DNA of 64,000 nt from Tubulanus polymorphus (Eukaryota; Nemertea; Palaeonemertea; Tubulaniformes; Tubulanidae), in contig NC_134030.1 in assembly GCF_964204645.1 (NCBI RefSeq), positions 4,689,855 to 4,753,854 on the forward strand. The letters are read 5' to 3'. Position numbers and translations under genes: made by a program. How positions within the stretch are numbered: position 1 is the stretch's first letter; the number at the start of each line of letters is the position of its first letter. Shown here in pieces: positions 2,187-31,880 of this stretch. The notes under the pieces were generated by a model. That model was not told the DNA's origin. It was given only the letters and a program-made list of their open reading frames with translations, and did not search any database.

Positions 2187-2443
<257 letters not shown>

Positions 2444-4446: not shown

Positions 4447-4605
<159 letters not shown>

Positions 4606-13045: not shown

Positions 13046-14507
13046 ATCCATCTCTACTGCAGAAAACTAGCTAATTTTCTTCCCCAAACTGCAGCTGGCA
13101 AAGGTTTCTATTTTTATATGTCTGTATCCGCTTTCATAGCAACAAAAAAGAAAGAAACTGTGTTATAAGATTTGCTATCATTGTAAAAATATATCACAAA
13201 TCAACATATTTTCTCTGGTCAAAACATCATCCGATCTTTTGAATCCATGCTCTTTCTGTTGGTAGTCACGTCTATCCTCTTAGGTCGGTGAAAAGAGAGA
13301 TAAAGATATTTCGCAGAGCTTACTCTCATTTTTCTGATAGAAACTATTCCCATCCACGTGGATTAGTGTTGACGCTACCTGTGTGTACTGTACTTGTCGC
13401 GAGAAGATCAATGCAGTTTCCGCCTTGACCACGTGATTTTATCCGAGTATCACTGGTGACTCAATAAAAGCTTACTAGGACTCACTTCGCAATATAGATT
13501 TTCCAATAATATTTTTGCACCACTACTGACGTAGTTAGGTGTATCATCGATATTTTGGAAACAGCTATATTTGCGGTGGTCCTTTAAAGAATTACTTATA
13601 TTTGGCTGGTTCTATCGCTTGTTTGTGTTCGTTTATTCCATTCAATTATGACTATGTTTCTTCTGTGAAAATTCCTTCGAGAACAAGATCCATGAATGTT
13701 TATTTACTTATATAGATTTATAAAGTTGCTTAAGACCTAGTCCACGAGTGTTGGATTCGATGGGGTTTGCTGACGGTGTAAATCCCTGATTACCTATGAC
13801 ATGTTTGCAATGGTTCTCATGGGTTTTCAATCTAAGCACAAACCGATTTCCTGGCGACTCTCGAAACAGATCATCGGCAATAATTCCCATCATCTAACTT
13901 GATCAAGCGTGCTCCGATTGGGATTGGTGGTGTCGCGCTGCTGGTGAGCTATACTTTCATTAGATAATATTGGTCATTGGTCACGGTAAGGCTCTACACA
14001 TACCGCAATAATTATATGATTGGATTTCAACTGTACAATGTGAATCTGATGTGCCATCGATCTATTTTGGAGTGCTGTTTTGGGAAGATACGTACCACAA
14101 TGAGTGATTATTGAGGATTCATTGGGCACAAAGCCTTGCTTCGAATTGAACATATGACGTAACATCAAATTTTCAGTAGAACTAAAACTATATACCTATA
14201 TCCAAAATGTCGCCCCTCACCGTTGTCTGAAGCATATTACATATATATTATATTTAGGTATGCCGATTTTGCTAGGAATAGCAAGAACAAAATCCTACTC
14301 GTTTCACAAATTATACGTGTTCGCAAATTATATACGTACAATATCATACGAGGAAAATTCAACACAACTGTGAAATTGTTATATGCATATACACCATCGA
14401 AGTATCATCATTTTATGATACATTTTTCCACGCGTCGCATCATCGCTTTTTCAAGTCACTTCAACGGACCCAATCGACTTCGTGATTCAATACCGCTGAG
14501 TTTGAGT

Positions 14508-15539
14508 ATGACTGGAAACGTAACTGTCGTCACCACTACGACGACTACTGTTACTACTCCGCAGTATGTTTGTCCATTAAACGGACTCCAAATACGAAAA
14601 CATAAGCTTCAAATATACTTCATTCTTCCCGTATGTATCATGGGAATATGCTTCAATATTTTCAGCTCCTTGGTTTTTAGGAAAATGTCTGATAGCGGGC
14701 AGGCAATGCGTCTCCTCATCCTCGTAGCACTGTCGGATATCATTTATCTTTCAAATACATTTTTAGACGGTCCGTTCCGTCATTTAATATTCAGAGCGAT
14801 CTTCGGTGACCTCATGTTTTATCGACCAGATTTTGCGGTTTTTCCGCTGTGGAACTGGATACGAATTGCGTCCTACAAGTCGACAGTGACGATCCGCAAT
14901 TGGATGGTAGTTCTAACAGCTGTCGTTAGATGTCTCCACGTGTTATTTCCGTTCTGGTCTCGGCGTTGTATCGATAAGAAACGGATCCATATTTGCACGT
15001 CCATTATTATTGTTATTTCGGCAGCTGTGTACGTGCCTCGTTATTTTGGTGGGAGAATAGGCACTGAAAAATGCCGCGGTGCTCCGCCACACTTTCCCCG
15101 TTTCAAGTTATTCAAACGAAGTAAAACCATTCATTACGTAGGCACTTGGATATATATGTTACTAACTATATCCATCCCAGCAGCGATTATCTTGTTCTCA
15201 AACGCAATTCTCTTATGGTCAGTATACAGGTCGTTTCAACTACGAAAATCAATATCTACCGAAAAAAACAATGGACGTTCGTCCAGGAAGACTAAAGCGA
15301 CACAACTAGTTTTAATAGCGACTTCTGTGTATCTGATTTGTGAATTACCACCTCTCATCACGAGGGTATGTAACTACTTCGTCAAAGTTAATTGGAATCC
15401 ATTTCTGTTAGAAACTATATTCGTAGTTATAAATAATCTACCACCGATCGACTCGGCCATTAATTGCGTGATTTATTTACTTGCTAGTAGACAATTTCGG
15501 ACAATGGCGAAAACGATGTGCTTTAAAAGTATTTCCTAA
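14508..15539 (+). CDS. Rhodopsin-class GPCR, left duplicate
   Basis: A single-exon, 343-residue seven-helix receptor. The ATG at 14508 opens a short N-terminus with a sequon (GNVT) and a Thr run. TM1 starts at about IYFILPVCIMGIC. TM2 contains LLILVALSDIIYL, keeping the helix-2 Leu/Asp pattern. At the end of TM3 the usual D/ERY is replaced by VVRC (LTAVVRCLHVLFPFW). TM7 reads DSAINCVIYLL, so NPxxY has become NCVIY. The open frame extends upstream without an ATG that the sister copy supports. It resembles the peptide-receptor-like orphan class A GPCRs expanded in invertebrates; the ligand is unknown. It differs from its twin (21765-22802) at few residues and is convergent with the orphan aquaporin exon. 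Confidence 0.85.
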   Translation: MTGNVTVVTTTTTTVTTPQYVCPLNGLQIRKHKLQIYFILPVCIMGICFNIFSSLVFRKMSDSGQAMRLLILVALSDIIYLSNTFLDGPFRHLIFRAIFGDLMFYRPDFAVFPLWNWIRIASYKSTVTIRNWMVVLTAVVRCLHVLFPFWSRRCIDKKRIHICTSIIIVISAAVYVPRYFGGRIGTEKCRGAPPHFPRFKLFKRSKTIHYVGTWIYMLLTISIPAAIILFSNAILLWSVYRSFQLRKSISTEKNNGRSSRKTKATQLVLIATSVYLICELPPLITRVCNYFVKVNWNPFLLETIFVVINNLPPIDSAINCVIYLLASRQFRTMAKTMCFKSIS

Positions 15540-15737
15540 CTAACAATATAAACCTTTCGATTTGGGGTCATCCTTGAGTAACACGAAGTGTTGCCCTACC
15601 TATGTACCTTTCCTTCGTCCTTAATCAACTACACTTCGGTTGTAGAATCGACTCTCTGTGTCGAAAGAATAGCATTGGGACAAATTACCACATCTATAGA
15701 CTGTATTGTCTTTATTGTTTAGCAGAAAGGGGTATTT

Positions 15738-15948
15738 TTACAGTTTCGTTAGATCCGTTTCATTTGACTGAGTGCAGTACGATATCGACGAACATGAAAA
15801 CTTGACTTCGTCAAGGTCTACGAGTTCATCGTTCACTTCATTGTCTAGATGAATCCCGATTACAAGAGGATACACGACAGTTGCGAACAGACTTCCGATC
15901 AGTGGTCCGATTAGCGGAATCCAAAACCAGCAGTTGTAGTTACGAAAA
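15738..15948 (-). pseudogene. Orphan terminal aquaporin exon
   Basis: This matches exon 6 of the intact aquaporin (23004-23211) and ends in the same TDLTKL-stop. It contains the last transmembrane stretch WIPLIGPLIGSLFATVVYP. A 3-bp insertion adds one Cys after the first Asn-Tyr-Asn. The acceptor is still AG (CGCAG instead of CACAG). Exons 1-5 are absent: homology ends in the intron about 60 bp beyond the acceptor, where element DNA begins. It is therefore a duplicated gene fragment and probably not expressed as an aquaporin. Confidence 0.88.
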
Positions 15949-16118
15949 CTGCGAAAAGAAACGCAAAGATCATTTAACAAAGATAATTTCAAATATGCAA
16001 GATACAAATTAGTGGGGTGATGATGAAGATGACTAAAGATTTTCTTATGGAACAAAAATTAAAATCTAGATGAAATTTTTAAAATATTTTCTATAGAAGA
16101 TCATACACCAGAATATAA

Positions 16119-16603
16119 TGCAATGGCTTGAAAAAATGAAAAAAATAGAAAATGAAAATGGTGAAATAACTAAGAAAGATATAATAAAAAGAATTATTCC
16201 GTCAACATGTAACACAAAAGAAAAGTAAATGTATTTATATTTATCATTTAAAGATTATTATTAGAAACCTTAATTAACAAAAGAAGATGTGGAAAATATA
16301 AAAGAAACATTCACAAACATATTAAAATATAATGTGCATATAAGAATAACAGATTCAATTAATTATGAATTCTTTTTAAATAAGATTGTAAATTTTTCAA
16401 ACATCGATATTATAATTCCATTTGATGAATTAACAAACAAAAAGAAACAAAGAGACCGAGATGAAATGTGGTACAATATAGAACTTTATTTAAATGAGAA
16501 AAATGAAATGAAAGAACCTAAAGAAATTATAGAAAAACAATTAAATGAAAATGAAGAAACCACTAGTGATTTCGAGTATGATGATATTGATTTCATGTTT
16601 TAA
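16119..16603 (+). pseudogene. Degenerate element ORF, unknown function
   Basis: The longest open piece is 16289-16603, about 104 codons. It is rich in Lys, Glu, Asn and Ile and ends with an acidic tail (TSDFEYDDIDFMF). The first codon of that open piece is GTG in mid-frame, and related coding-like sequence continues upstream (a 37-codon piece beginning with MQWLEKMKK near 16119) across stop codons. It is the decayed 3' part of a longer gene. No family is recognised; composition ties it to the polymerase relic. Its TAA at 16601-16603 overlaps the polymerase stop on the other strand. Confidence 0.5.
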
Positions 16604-19600
16604 TCACCATAAGGTAATGTTTTTATTCCATCACCCAAAATATGTCTTTTATCATCGAATGGATTTAAGCTAGTTTTTTCAACTTCATTAATGTACATCT
16701 CGTGATCTTCTGATCTGAAACAATTAATTTTATGTTTCATTACAATTTAATTATATAAACATTTTATATTCTCTTGAAATTCTATATGTTTAGCAACCAA
16801 ATGCTTTGTTATTCCTTTTAACTTTTTAGCTTCATGATCTTTTGTTCTATAACTATACATTTTACTTCTTATCCCAACAAATTCATGATAATTCATGATA
16901 AAATAATTCATGATCTTTTGGATAATTGCTTAAGTCAAAATGATGTTTTAATGTTTTAAAAGTCTTTTGTTATATCATTTATTTTGATTTTTAGTATGTA
17001 CGCATCCGTATTGACCGCTATTAATGGAAATCCACAGTTAAGTTTCCCATCTTCAGTTGATAAATCATAAACATTATCTGATGGGTTATATATTTCAAAT
17101 AAATCTTTAACTTCTTCAGTTATTTCTTTTTCTGTATGCCTTAGATTAAAACAATTTGGCTTAGATTTAATCAATCCAATATTCATATCAAATTCTAATG
17201 AATTGCATAATATATTTTATCCTGCTAGAACAACTTTTCCTTTTTGAGCAAAAGATACTGATTTGTGGTTTTTACATCTTTTTGAACCATCTGCTGTGTA
17301 GAATCCTATAAAATACCATTTAACATAATTATACACACCTGCTGAACCATCTCCCATAAAAAATCCTTTAATAAAATATTATTTTTCTTCTAATGTTTCT
17401 GGTTCTATATTATAGATATTATTAATTATTTCATCAAATGACATATGATTCATTCTTGGATAAAATCTTTTATGTAATAATTCATCTCCAATATTTATAT
17501 CAGTTGGTTTTATTTCATCACCATTTTGTTTAATTAAACTATGATCTTCAGTAACATCTACAAACCCTAATTTAGTTCTAACTCTATAAATCTTTTTATT
17601 TGTTTTATGTCTAATTATATTCTTTAATTTTTTCCATCCATTTCTTGTCCAAACATCCCTTAATCCATTTATTTGTATTAATTCTTTTTCACGATATGAA
17701 ATATAAAGTTCATTTTGATTAGGCATTATTTCTGAAATTCTTCTTATTAATATTTGATTATCATATTTTAATAATATTAGAGTATCAGCTGTAACAGAAT
17801 CAAAATATAATATTTCAATATGCTTTTCCCCAAAAAGTGGTTGTAAAACATTATAATAAAAATCATACATTAATAATTTTGATACTTCTAAAACAGTTGA
17901 ACCTATGAGTATAGGTTTATTTAATTTCATTGACGTTCTTTTTAATTTTACTGCTGTTAAATAATCTTCAAATCTTTTATTTCCTAAGTGGCTATGACTT
18001 GATTGTAAATGTCTCAATCGTTCAGAATTATTTACTAATTCAATTTCATTTCTATTTCTAATATTTTCACATGTTTTTCCATAAAAACTATTATGCATTA
18101 ATTTTAAAAAACCTTTTTCAAAGTCTGTTTTAGATATTGTTCTCTGTTGAGTATTGAAATCTATATATTTTTCTAACCACTTCGATTGATTAAATTCAAT
18201 ATATCTATGTACTTTCTTTAATTTCATTCCTTGTTTTAGATAAAATTATAACATTCTTTAATGAACAATATAATTGTATTGATTATTTTGTGTTGATATT
18301 AATTTTTCAGTAAAAACATGATCTTTCGTTTGTATTTTTTTCTGATATTCACTTAGATAACTATCATCTACGGCTAAATGTTCTGGGCAATAAGGTAAGT
18401 TTCTTGTTTTAAACTTTATGTTACCTGGATATTCTAAATCAACTACAAAGAAATAACCAATTGGAGCATCATCTTCTAAACTCATAATTGCGCTTTCCCA
18501 ATTAGTTTTATCATCATTTTCAACTTCTGTTAGTATAAAATTTTTATATGGTTGAGGTTGCATCATCGCCCAGCCATAAAAATTAGTTGCGTCAATATAT
18601 AATAATTTATATTCATCATTTGCTTTAAAATACCTATCTCCCATAACACCACTAATTCCACCTATAATTAATTTTTCAAATAATAAAACTATGTCTGGTT
18701 CTTATAATACATCTAATTCTACATTTGTATATTTTAAACCACATTGCCAAGTTGAACCGGGACTAGAGTAGCAATAACAAGGATCAATTTAAAATGATTT
18801 ATATTAACTTCTCTAACTTTTTCAAATATGTCAGCCTATATCATAACATCTGATTTCAAGTATAAATCTACTAATTCACCATGATTTTTTACCTTAAAAT
18901 GATTCCAAGTATTTAATGTTCTATTAAAAACTTTCACATACTCATTTTTTAATTGATCATCAAATTGTTCTTTTAATAATTCTGTTACATCAAAATCATC
19001 GTGTGTTTTATAAAATGAATAAGGAATTGCACCTTTATATCTCAATAATTTAAAATCTTGTTAATTTGGATAATAATGTCGAGTAATAACAAAATCATTA
19101 TCAACTAAACTTTTTCCTAAATTATCTAATGAACTTGCTAGAAATCTATAAGAATCTAAGAATGTAATGCAACCAAATTGAAATGAAATACAATTTTCAG
19201 ATGTTTTAGCTAATAGTTTAAAATCATATTTTCTTACATTTTAATCATTTATAGCATTATATTCTTCTATTTCTTGATTAATTGCACCTAATTTTCCTGA
19301 TAATTGTTTTATAAACAAGTGGGTATCATACCCTGATAAATTATGAAATAATATTGGTACGAAATCAACATTTTTAGCTTGTAAATTACAATCTTCATGA
19401 GCATCTCCACGATATTTTGAATTTAAATGATCATGACCTGTAACTTTTTTATCAAATGAATAAAAACGTCTTTCACAGTAACAACAATGAGTTGCATAAT
19501 TAAAATCAATTTCATCTCCTTTTGTCATAACTATTCTTCTATTTTTGTTTAATAATTGTGCAAAATCACTTTCTAATTCAATTATTTTATTACAAAAATC

Positions 19601-21300
19601 ATTTACTACATCTTCACCTCCTAAAGAAATATATTGACTTTCATATAATTCAGGATAATTTGATTTTATATAAATTCCATAAGCAGCAGCTCTTTGATGA
19701 ACTTTATTAATTGTATTTATGATTGGTGGGTCTTGAATAATGTCTTCATTTAATTCATTTCCTTTGTCCATTGATTTTAAAAATTGCTTTTTGTGGTATA
19801 TTTCTTTTTTGATCAGTTAATATTTTATTCAACGATTCAAAATCCCTACAAATTAGAAATGGCACTATATTTTTAAATTTATTATGCGTAAATCTCAATT
19901 CATAATCTTTTTCTGTTGGCATTATAAATTTGCAAAAATCTTTATTATCACATAATTCTTTATGTTTTAATAATGCATTCTCAGTCAAAAATTTTGATAA
20001 ACATTTTCTACATAGACAAATTTTACGATGGTGATCACTTTCTGTTCTAAAAAATAAATCTATTTGTTTTAACCACATAAAATGTTCATTTTCATCTTTC
20101 ATCTTTATAACAAATCTATGACATTTTCATCATCATAATATTCTGTTAAATATAAAGCTTCTAATGTATAATCTTTAATATTTTCACCTTTTGTCTCTGG
20201 TTATTGCATTAATTCGACAACATTTATTTTTAAATTATTAACTTTTTCTATTTTAGGTATCATCTTTATAGTAACTGGATATTGGTCAATTTTATATAAT
20301 GTTTCATATTTCCGGTAATCTGTTATTCTAAAACTATGCGTTATATCTTCTGTTGGGTATAAACAACTAATAATTGACCATAGAAAACATTTATTATCTT
20401 CATTTTGAACATTTATTACTGCTTTTGTTGTAAATGGTAATTTAATATAAGATGATGCTTTAATATCCTTTTCTGTTGTAAAGTTTGAATCATTTTTAAA
20501 CATTTTATGACTTTTTGATGTTTTATCTCTTTTTGTATTATAAATATTTAAATCTAGAAATATAATTTCATCCAATGTTAAACCAGAACCCTCAAATATC
20601 TTTCCTCAATATGACGTTTGAATTCATTAATTATTTTTTCTAATTTCTCTTTTATATGTGTTTCTGAAATTATTTCTTCAGAATATGTTTGAATATTATA
20701 ATCCATTTTTTCTTCTGACGTTATAAAACTTACTTTTCCAGAAATACTAATTTTTGGATAATCAACATCTGTAACAAAGTCAATTATTTTTTCCATTATT
20801 TCAATATATTTGCTATAATCTTCTCTTGTTGTACCTTTAAAAAATCCAAATAATATAGCTGCAGGACCAATTTTACTACGAAATGTTTCTAAAATTTCAA
20901 TTGTATCTTTTATTTCTAGGGAATCGATACAATTTCTAACATATTCCATATAAGGTTTATTTGAAATAGATTTAGTTTTTGAAGCTGGTTTTTTTACTTG
21001 TTGAGGTTTATCATCAAAATATTCTGTTCCTAAAATATTTTTATCTAAATTTTGTTGGTGTTTTTGTGATTCGAGATGTCTTTTATAATTCTTTTTTTTG
21101 CTATAAATTCATTACAAACATTACATTTAATTTCATCTTCATTTAATCGTTCTTTTTTTCATTGGAATTTTCTGGAGTTTCAAAATCTATAACATTTTTT
21201 TTAATGATTTGCAATTTTTTCATGTTGAGATTTATGTGATTAATCCATATATTTTTTACAATATGCACAATTATATTGATTTTTATTAACATCATTGTTT
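16600..21300 (-). pseudogene. Family B DNA polymerase (Polinton/adintovirus type), broken, with intein
   Basis: The relic of a protein-primed-type DNA polymerase. N to C: a CxxC...H zinc-finger-like piece (about 21.25 kb); the upstream module with SSYIKLP and NKCFLWSIISCLYP (20.2-20.6 kb); a second Cys/His finger CLCRKC (20.0 kb); exonuclease motif I as CRDFES (19.85 kb); an HNH-like stretch GHDHLNSKYRGDAHEDCN and exonuclease II FHNLSGYDTH (19.3-19.45 kb); exonuclease III region FLDSYRFL (19.16 kb); polymerase motif A YIDATNFYGWAM (18.6 kb); motif B KLMHNSFYGKT (18.1 kb); motif C split as YFD / TDA around an intein (17010-17798); C-terminus LGDGIKTLPYGD. Breaks: frameshifts near 20590, 20105, 19765 and 18.8 kb and just past 16956, plus stops at 20201, 19241, near 19060, 18258, 17379, 17217 and 16956. 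The order of motifs is that of Pfam DNA_pol_B_2 proteins. It cannot make a functional enzyme as read. Confidence 0.88.
17010..17798 (-). other. Intein inserted in polymerase motif C, with homing-endonuclease remnant
   Basis: A 263-codon insertion in one uninterrupted phase splits the polymerase motif C between YFD and TDA. Its first residue is Ser (SVTADT). A block-B-like VTEDHSL follows with the T-x-x-H signature. Two LAGLIDADG-like (DOD) motifs come next: GFFMGDGSAG (17337-17366) and IGFYTADGSK (17280-17309). The C-terminal blocks are VYDLSTEDGKL and GFPLIAVN, ending in Asn, followed by extein Thr. Placement equals the pol-c site known for PolB inteins of giant viruses and archaea. The two DOD motifs are only about 10 residues apart, so the endonuclease core appears to have lost most of its middle. 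In-frame TAA codons lie at 17379-17381 and 17217-17219. The penultimate His is Val. It is probably extinct; the identity as an intein looks firm. Confidence 0.9.
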
Positions 21301-21397
21301 TCTGTCTGTCTCCCATTCATTAGGAAAAATTACTTATGGTGATGAGTGATTGTCGCTCTCTCGCTCTCTGGTATGAAACCCACATTCACCAATTACT

Positions 21398-23273
21398 AAT
21401 GTGAATCTGGTGTGCCATCGATCTATTTTGGAGTGCTGTTTTGGGAAGATACGTACCACAACGAGTGATTATTGAGGACTCATTGGGCACAAGGCCTTGC
21501 TTGGAATTGAACATATGACGTAACATCATATTTTCAGTAGAACTAAATCTATATACCTTTATCAAAAATGTCGCCCATCACCGTTGTCTGAAGCATATTA
21601 CATATATATTATATTTGGGTATGCTGATTTTGCTAGGAATAGCAAGAACGAAATCCTACTCGTTTCACAAATTATACGTATTCGCAAATTATATACGTAC
21701 AATATCATACGAGGAAAATTCAACACAACTGTGAAATTGTTATATGCATACACCATCGAACATTATGGAATGGACTGGAAACATAACTGTCGTCACCACT
21801 ACGACGACTACTGTTACTACTCCGCAGTATGTTTGTCCATTTCACGGACTCCAAATACGGAAACATAAGGTTCAAATATACTTCATTCTTCCCGTATGTA
21901 TAATAGGAATATGCTTCAATATTTTCAGCTCCTTGGTTTTTAGGAAAATGTCTGATAGCGGGCAGGCAATGCGTCTCCTCATCCTCGTAGCACTGTCGGA
22001 TATCATTTATCTTTCAAATACATTTTTAGACGGTCCGTTCCGTCATTTAGTATTCAGAGCAATCTACGGTGACCTCATGTTTCATCGACCAGATTTTGCG
22101 GTTTTTCCGCTGTGGAACTGGATACGAATTGCGTCCTACAAGTCGACAGTGACGATCCGCAATTGGATGGTAGTTCTAACGGCTGTCGTTAGATGTCTCC
22201 ACGTGTTATTTCCGTTCTGGTCTCGGCGTTGTATCGATAAGAAACGGATCCATATTTGCACGTCCATTATTATTGTTATTTCGGCAGCTGTGTACGTGCC
22301 TCGTTATTTCGGCGGGAGAATAGGCACTGAAAAATGCCGCGGCGCTCCGCCAAACTTTCCTCGTTTCAAGGTATTCAAACGAAGTAAAACCATTGATTAC
22401 GTAGGCACTTGGATATATATGTTACTAACTATATCCATCCCAGCAGCGATTATCTTGTTCTCAAACGCGATTCTCTTATGGTCAGTATACAGGTCGTTTA
22501 AACTACGAAAATCAATGTCTACCGAAAAAAACAATGGAGGTTCGCCCAGGAAGACTAAAGCGACACAATTGGTTTTAATAGCGACTTCTGTGTATCTGAT
22601 TTGTGAATTACCACCTCTCATCACGAGGATATGTAACTACTTCGTAAAAGTTGATTGGAATCCATTACTGCTACAAACTATATTCGTAGTTATAAATAAT
22701 CTACCACCGATCGACTCGGCCATTAATTGCGTGATTTATTTACTTGCTAGTAGACAATTTCGGACAACGGCGAAAACGATGTGCTTTAAAAGTATTTCCT
22801 AACTAACAATATAAACCTTTCGCTTTGGGGTCATCCTTGAATAACAACAAAGTGTTGCCCTACCTATGTACCGTTCCTTCGTCCTTAATTTACTACACTT
22901 CGGTTGTAAAATCGACACTCTGTGTCGAAAGAATAGCGTTGTAACAAATATTACAACATCTATAGTCTGTTTTATCTTTATTGTTAAGCAGAAAAAGGTA
23001 TTTTTAGAGTTTCGTTAGATCCGTTTCATTTGACTCTGTGCAATACGAAAGCGACGAACATGAAAACTTCACTTCGTCGATGTCTACGAGTTCATCGTTC
23101 ACTTCATTGTCTAGATGAATCCCGATTACAAGAGGATACACGACAGTTGCGAGCAGACCTCCGATCAGTGGTCCGATTAGCGGAATCCAAAACCAGTTGT
23201 AGTTACGAAAACTGTGAAAAGAAACGCAAATATCATTTAACAAAGATAATTCAAATATGCGAGATACAAATTA
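21398..23273. repeat. Segmental duplication, right copy
   Basis: The 1876-bp partner of 14038-16011 carries the second GPCR and exon 6 of the intact aquaporin. Its left edge abuts a short (CT)-rich piece and then element DNA; its right edge runs into aquaporin intron 5 and the rest of that gene. Because the aquaporin is complete only here, this copy is likely the original location. Confidence 0.92.
21765..22802 (+). CDS. Rhodopsin-class GPCR, right duplicate
   Basis: A single-exon, 345-residue twin of the GPCR at 14508-15539. The ATG at 21765 (MEWTGNITVV) is preferred over one seven codons upstream because it fits a short N-terminus with a sequon and Thr run. The same changes from consensus are present: VVRC in place of D/ERY and NCVIY in place of NPxxY. 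Basic loop segments (WSRRCIDKKR, and RSFKLRKS in the third cytoplasmic loop) support seven-helix topology. Substitutions against the twin are few and mostly conservative, so both copies look selected or very recent. The ligand is unknown. The gene is tail to tail with the aquaporin. Confidence 0.87.
   Translation: MEWTGNITVVTTTTTTVTTPQYVCPFHGLQIRKHKVQIYFILPVCIIGICFNIFSSLVFRKMSDSGQAMRLLILVALSDIIYLSNTFLDGPFRHLVFRAIYGDLMFHRPDFAVFPLWNWIRIASYKSTVTIRNWMVVLTAVVRCLHVLFPFWSRRCIDKKRIHICTSIIIVISAAVYVPRYFGGRIGTEKCRGAPPNFPRFKVFKRSKTIDYVGTWIYMLLTISIPAAIILFSNAILLWSVYRSFKLRKSMSTEKNNGGSPRKTKATQLVLIATSVYLICELPPLITRICNYFVKVDWNPLLLQTIFVVINNLPPIDSAINCVIYLLASRQFRTTAKTMCFKSIS

Positions 23274-26924: not shown

Positions 26925-31880
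<4,956 letters not shown>

What the first reader, a model, noticed from the sequence alone, without database searches (positions are those of the whole stretch)
17010..17798. Intein inside a Polinton/adintovirus-type DNA polymerase relic in an animal genome
A 263-codon insertion splits polymerase motif C between YFD and TDA. It begins with Ser-Val-Thr-Ala-Asp-Thr, has a T-x-x-H block B (VTEDHSL), two DOD endonuclease motifs, and ends in AVN before extein Thr. These are the diagnostic intein blocks, at the pol-c site used by giant-virus and archaeal PolB inteins. Inteins in PolBs of animal-integrated Polinton-like elements are, as far as I know, little described.
Basis: partly seen in the sequence, partly recalled or inferred. 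Interest (0 to 1): 0.92.

Follow-up and report, generated by a model that had tools for sequence, protein, structure and literature searches.

The report
Dead intein in animal-integrated viral polymerase
An invertebrate animal's genome carries the broken remains of a virus-type DNA polymerase gene, and inside it sits the broken remains of an intein (a self-splicing protein parasite), a kind of element that the intein literature describes as absent from animal genomes.

Summary
Confirmed. The minus strand of 17010-17798 is a LAGLIDADG intein relic splitting polymerase motif C (YFD|intein|TDA). Its N-piece scores 35.1 bits (cut-off 24.5) to the intein N-terminal profile; its middle piece matches LAGLIDADG_3 at cut-off. 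Related polymerases carry 347-348-aa inteins at this site; others, such as P0006 and P0022, are uninterrupted. The copy is dead: two in-frame stops, about 80 codons missing between the endonuclease motifs, penultimate His replaced by Val, polymerase broken throughout. It lies in a 5.4-kb AT-rich insert between two copies of a duplicated GPCR gene whose best match is a ribbon-worm protein. In the tree the intein falls in a supported clade (99/95) with inteins of another polymerase family, PF00136, from viral contigs and unnamed proteins. Presence is patchy among relatives, as expected of a homing parasite. No other Polinton gene or long terminal repeat was found, so 'Polinton/adintovirus-type' fits the polymerase only. 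Two intein papers state that inteins are absent from metazoan genomes; this is an exception, as a fossil.

The parts
17010..17798 (-). intein relic (263 codons, two stops included) between motif-C residues YFD and TDA
17382..17798 (-). N-terminal splicing (Hint) domain: Ser1, block B VTEDHSL; 139 residues, open
   Evidence: TIGR01445 35.1 bits; 65-67% identical to P0004; model matches intein structures
17379..17381 (-). in-frame stop codon in intein
17220..17378 (-). remnant of LAGLIDADG homing endonuclease; the two DOD motifs brought together by an in-frame loss of about 80 codons
   Evidence: LAGLIDADG_3 at cut-off; split matches to P0121, P0130, P0139, P0161
17217..17219 (-). in-frame stop codon in intein
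17010..17216 (-). C-terminal splicing block ending PLIAVN; penultimate His of relatives is Val here
17799..18242 (-). N-extein: polymerase palm with motif B (LMHNSFYGK) up to YFD of motif C
   Evidence: PF03175 22.6 bits, below cut-off; 59-60% to P0005 and P0006
16606..17009 (-). C-extein fragments (TDAYILKIK, NYPKDHELF, SKMYSYRTKDHEAKKLKG, SLNPFDDKR) in more than one frame
16606..20458 (-). polymerase gene relic as covered by tblastn to the 1313-aa relative in L082: six blocks in frames -2,-1,-2,-1,-2,-3, with 7 in-frame stops inside the blocks; upstream ORF 20578-20949 probably belongs to it (not matched)
16012..21397 (.). AT-rich insert (22-30% GC in 500-base steps, flanks 36-43%) holding the polymerase relic
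14037..16011 (+). first copy of duplicated host GPCR unit
   Evidence: 95.2-95.6% identical to 21398-23273; Srw GPCR
21398..23273 (+). second copy of duplicated host GPCR unit

Best explanation
It is the fossil of a mobile LAGLIDADG intein (Ser1 nucleophile, Thr +1) at motif C of the DNA polymerase of an integrated DNA virus or virus-like element in an animal nuclear genome. In the ancestor the intein would have been translated inside the polymerase, excised itself and joined the two halves of the catalytic motif, while its endonuclease would have cut intein-free alleles so that the intein was copied into them. After integration the polymerase was no longer maintained: frameshifts and stops accumulated, the endonuclease lost about 80 codons in frame, and the intein gained two stops and lost its penultimate His. 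Shown: intein homology, exact site, empty-site relatives, decay, animal flanks. Inferred: splicing and homing in the ancestor, viral origin of the insert, direction of transfer, order of the decay.
For: TIGR01445 E 2e-8 over cut-off. LAGLIDADG_3 at cut-off. Relatives spanning extein and intein. Uninterrupted sites in P0005, P0006, P0022, P0055. The four relatives in which both ends could be read have inteins of 347-348 aa ending HN before TD or AD; the window pieces match such relatives one by one. AlphaFold model of the window N-piece: Foldseek ranks 1-16 are 14 entries titled as inteins or intein endonucleases plus two NeqN/NeqC entries (a split intein, recalled). Model of relative P0139 (pTM 0.83): homing-endonuclease inteins, best E 2.5e-18. 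Intein and extein differ about equally from relatives (intein/extein: 49/47% P0002, 46/43% P0130, 63/56% P0001, 73/80% P0003), as expected if the splicing domain was kept working while the polymerase was. Host GPCR copies on both sides.
Against: No splicing or cleavage was or could be tested. The C-terminal His is absent here. Pfam Intein_splicing stays below cut-off. No Foldseek hit of the window piece reaches E 0.001 (best 1.2e-3, TM about 0.4; truncated domain, pLDDT 74). Viral status of the insert rests on the polymerase alone.
Confidence: 0.93

Rival explanations
1. The stretch is an ordinary lineage-specific domain or loop of the polymerase, not an intein.
For: It keeps the frame of the polymerase on both sides.
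Against: Intein profile above cut-off, uninterrupted site in relatives, intein folds, position in the centre of catalytic motif C, related inteins at that site in another polymerase family.
Confidence: 0.02
2. The intein was inherited within this polymerase family from a deep ancestor and lost many times, rather than having moved between polymerase families by homing.
For: Similar divergence of intein and extein. One origin of the eight family inteins is not rejected (p-AU 0.47). 22 of 23 intein rows fall in one starred extein clade of 30. The DNA next to the site agrees with the window at only 13-17 of 30 bases in the 12 viral and archaeal loci compared, so the cutting site is not obviously shared (the window copy is decayed).
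Against: The 23-row intein clade that joins them to inteins of PF00136 polymerases has support 99/95, although few columns (115) carry the tree. Presence and absence are mixed: at least 5 changes, 4 forced by starred branches. P0010, placed elsewhere in the extein tree, has an intein too.
Confidence: 0.33
3. The viral sequence is an assembly artefact or contamination joined to animal DNA.
For: Composition changes sharply at both ends, and the host genome could not be searched.
Against: The insert is heavily decayed, unlike a live contaminant, and lies between two related but about 5% different host copies.
Confidence: 0.05

Closest known systems
Motif-C (pol-c, name recalled) inteins of PF00136 family-B polymerases: in the same tree clade L002, L004, L005, L009, L010, L013 and P0088, P0094, P0095, P0096, P0098, P0100, P0101, P0102, P0106; further off, other viral contigs and archaeal L070-L080
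   Same: Related N-domain, TEDHS-type block B, insertion between D and T of the YxDTDS motif where both ends were read; clade with the window intein supported at 99/95. In the 12 loci the boundary is the same, but the search pattern there demanded it.
   Different: Extein is PF00136/PF03104 in the three viral loci scanned (L004, L005, L010) and PF00136 by precomputed match in P0088, P0095, P0101, P0106; P0096 instead carries a Clp protease match; the others of the clade were not scanned. Here the extein is DNA_pol_B_2-like and the copy is a pseudogene in an animal genome.
Full-length inteins in polymerases P0121, P0124, P0130, P0139 and kin
   Same: Same polymerase family and site; N-domain 44-50% identical to the window's.
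   Different: 347-348 aa with both endonuclease motifs and terminal HN; most of the 45 hits are 73-93% identical to P0002's intein part; hosts not named.
Homing-nuclease insertions in polinton pPolBs (PMC11071308, passages seen; it cites Jeong et al. 2023, not held)
   Same: Nuclease-bearing insertions in polymerases of animal-integrated elements, which the authors suggest result from intein invasions.
   Different: As recalled, those are HNH and VSR domains at other positions; the passages seen do not mention a motif-C LAGLIDADG intein.

Membership tests
Intein | N-terminal splicing (Hint) profile | tested here: met
   TIGR01445 35.1 bits, cut-off 24.5; but PF14890 20 bits, below its cut-off of 35.8
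Intein | Ser/Cys at position 1 and block B T-x-x-H | tested here: met
   S1, T83-E-D-H86
Intein | C-terminal His-Asn followed by Ser/Thr/Cys | tested here: not met
   Asn and +1 Thr present, His is Val in this decayed copy; complete relatives have HN. The claim is therefore 'intein relic', not working intein.
Intein | In-frame insertion with intein-free homologues | tested here: met
   P0005, P0006, P0022, P0055 read YxDTDS without insert; 69 of 159 proteins classed as empty by pattern, at least one of them (P0153) wrongly
Intein | Protein splicing activity | not testable with these tools
   No bench test; this copy has stops and cannot splice as it stands
LAGLIDADG homing endonuclease | Two DOD motifs in a domain of normal length, and the profile | tested here: inconclusive
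   Both motifs present, about 80 codons between them missing; PF14528 22.5 bits, exactly at cut-off
Polinton/adintovirus polymerase | DNA_pol_B_2 type family-B polymerase | tested here: inconclusive
   Window piece 22.6 bits against cut-off 25.8; relative P0155 41.4 bits, while P0022, P0006, P0014, P0061 and the L082 polymerase gave no Pfam match at 0.01
Polinton element | Integrase, capsid, ATPase, protease genes and long terminal inverted repeats | tested here: not met
   No such Pfam family in the 29 ORFs of 110 aa or more (decayed fragments could be missed); six non-polymerase genes of L082 give nothing better than E 0.024 in the window; none of the 25 of 33 inverted repeats shown for 15400-22000 is longer than 36 nt

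The most novel reading that the evidence does not exclude
One mobile motif-C intein lineage has crossed between two separate polymerase families, PF00136 polymerases of DNA viruses and the DNA_pol_B_2-like polymerases of elements integrated in animals, and is still spreading in some genomes. That would make animal nuclear genomes part of the intein's range, contrary to the published view that inteins are absent from metazoans. (Probability lowered from 0.5 to 0.45 on recheck, because of the weak agreement of the flanking DNA.)
Probability: 0.45. Interest if true: 0.78.

Novelty: new variant of a known kind. Interest (0 to 1): 0.64.

Why it matters
Two papers, seen in passages, say that inteins are absent from metazoan genomes and use this to argue for intein inhibitors as drugs (PMC5784728; PMC8529194). 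A fossil intein in an animal genome qualifies that statement, adds a polymerase family to those invaded at motif C, and offers a case in which a genetic parasite may have moved between unrelated virus lineages that share little more than the catalytic motif.

Tried and rejected
Rejected: ordinary polymerase domain; complete Polinton element. Led nowhere: viral-contig scans with A1 and P0130 confirmed no relative; the first scan gave L001, matched over 31 residues only, whose reading frames do not look like an intein; the L082 polymerase scan found only its own contig; PHROGs gave nothing for the intein; the PDB profile search with the extein family gave nothing; Rfam and tRNA scans were empty. 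The search of the window's own genome did not complete five times. Single origin of the family's inteins is neither shown nor rejected.

Rows dropped: intein tree, 97 sequences reduced to 75 by removing identical ones; L001, L068 and L069 were not in it. P0096, which may be a joined prediction (Clp protease match), was kept. Extein tree: 159 proteins classed by pattern as 69 empty, 42 intein, 48 without a readable site; the pattern is imperfect (P0153 and P0158 mis-called; some of the 48, such as P0161, do hold an intein). The tree used 91 rows, window included: 68 empty and 23 intein. Left out: the 48; 13 further rows taken out by name as other polymerases or mis-calls; 8 intein rows with under 70 extein residues.

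Full report
What is there. The minus strand of 17010-17798 translates in one frame to 263 codons, two of them stops. The open N-terminal piece (139 aa, 17382-17798) matches NCBIfam intein_Nterm at 35.1 bits (cut-off 24.5) and, below cut-off, Pfam Intein_splicing (20 bits against 35.8). The middle piece matches LAGLIDADG_3 exactly at its cut-off (22.5 bits). The C-terminal piece matches no intein model on its own but aligns with the C-terminal blocks of relatives. An AlphaFold model of the N-piece (pLDDT 74, pTM 0.46) has inteins as Foldseek ranks 1-16 (14 so titled, two NeqN/NeqC entries recalled to be a split intein), best E 1.2e-3 and none under 0.001: weak numbers for a truncated domain, but a consistent list.

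The gene it sits in. Upstream, 17799-18242 is the palm of a family-B polymerase ending YFD; downstream the sequence goes on with TDA and then the rest of the polymerase in fragments. Aligned with a 1313-aa relative in L082, the gene covers 20458-16606 in six blocks that differ in frame from one to the next, with seven in-frame stops inside the blocks. It is a pseudogene. The polymerase piece reaches 22.6 bits to DNA_pol_B_2 (cut-off 25.8); relative P0155 reaches 41.4, while several other relatives match no Pfam model at 0.01.

Relatives. A search of 5.8 billion proteins with the open N-extein plus intein piece gave 117 hits. Seven of them (P0001, P0002, P0003, P0004, P0007, P0008, P0010) carry this polymerase type with an intein at the same site; P0005, P0006, P0022, P0055 and many more are uninterrupted there. 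A second search with the intein part of P0002 gave 45 hits, most of them 73-93% identical to it, one cluster standing for 55 member sequences. The four in which both ends could be read have inteins of 347-348 aa ending HN before TD or AD. A model of one of them (P0139, pTM 0.83) matches solved homing-endonuclease inteins, best E 2.5e-18. Against these the window copy lacks about 80 codons between the two endonuclease motifs, in frame.

Kin of the intein. Scans gave 67 IMG/VR loci and 12 archaeal loci with related inteins. In a tree of 75 N-domains (115 columns) the eight inteins of this polymerase family and 15 others, six from viral contigs of 4-80 kb and nine from unnamed proteins, form a clade with support 99/95; the archaeal ones fall outside it. 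The three viral polymerases of this clade that were scanned (L004, L005, L010 of six) are PF00136/PF03104 polymerases, and four of the nine proteins carry a precomputed PF00136 match. That they belong to large viruses is inferred, not shown. The eight are not one clade in the best tree, but one origin is not rejected (p-AU 0.47). The DNA beside the site agrees with the window at 13-17 of 30 bases in the 12 loci compared, which does not by itself suggest a shared cutting site.

Patchy presence. In a tree of 91 extein rows, 22 of 23 intein rows lie in one starred clade of 30 rows together with 8 empty ones; P0010 lies elsewhere. At least 5 changes are needed, 4 forced by starred branches. This suits a parasite gained by homing and lost again. 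Between the window and its relatives, intein and extein differ about equally, which suggests that the splicing domain was under constraint as long as the polymerase was.

Where it lies. The polymerase relic is in an AT-rich insert, 16012-21397, between two copies of a host unit that are about 95% identical. The unit encodes an Srw-type GPCR; its only matches at E 0.001 or better, among 2,007 candidates, are two proteins of Tubulanus polymorphus, a nemertean, at 51-52% identity. The host is therefore an animal, probably a nemertean or related lophotrochozoan; its name is not known here. No long inverted repeat was found across 15400-22000 (25 of 33 pairs shown). Pfam found no integrase, capsid, ATPase or protease family in the window's 29 ORFs of 110 aa or more, and the other genes of L082 found nothing convincing (best E 0.024, inside the intein).

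What is known in print. Two papers, seen in passages, state that inteins are absent from metazoan genomes (PMC5784728; PMC8529194). A preprint, seen in passages, says polinton pPolBs contain diverse homing-endonuclease domains that suggest intein invasions (PMC11071308), citing a nematode study that is not held. PMC12220804 and PMC3671162, seen in passages, mention inteins only in general or in giant viruses. Eight literature searches, several with capped listings, listed no paper whose title or abstract start describes an intein in an animal genome. Most subscription journals are not in the library, so this is no proof of absence.

Verdict. The observation and the main interpretation stand. 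It is a new variant of a known kind: a known intein type at a known site, in a polymerase family and a kind of genome for which I found no description, preserved as a pseudogene.

Noticed in passing
window 14037-16011 and 21398-23273: Tandem duplication of an Srw-type GPCR gene, about 95% identical, with the AT-rich insert exactly between the copies; the order of duplication and insertion is open.
   Followed up: partly
window 16097-16603 (+): Two plus-strand reading frames inside the AT-rich insert, convergent with the polymerase, without a Pfam match near cut-off.
   Followed up: partly
P0037, P0042, P0047, P0082: Intein-free copies in the P0002 lineage read DCD instead of DTD at motif C; they could be intein-resistant target sites or plain decay.
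   Followed up: no
L082 (IMG/VR contig of 15,128 bases): Full-length 1313-aa relative of the polymerase beside a phospholipase A2 (PF08398) and a fibre gene (PF03903; Peptidase_S74 below cut-off).
   Followed up: partly
L076, L079, L081: Archaeal proteins with a related intein after a VEDS or IEDS motif in what looks by eye like an ATPase, not a polymerase.
   Followed up: no
LR756508.1 265506-265796 (L069): A 484-kb uncultured phage genome encodes a stretch 37% identical to the window's intein N-domain, E 2e-11.
   Followed up: no
window 2192-2441, 4449-4603, 28877-28998, 30397-30529: Long TA/AT dinucleotide arrays, up to 125 copies.
   Followed up: no
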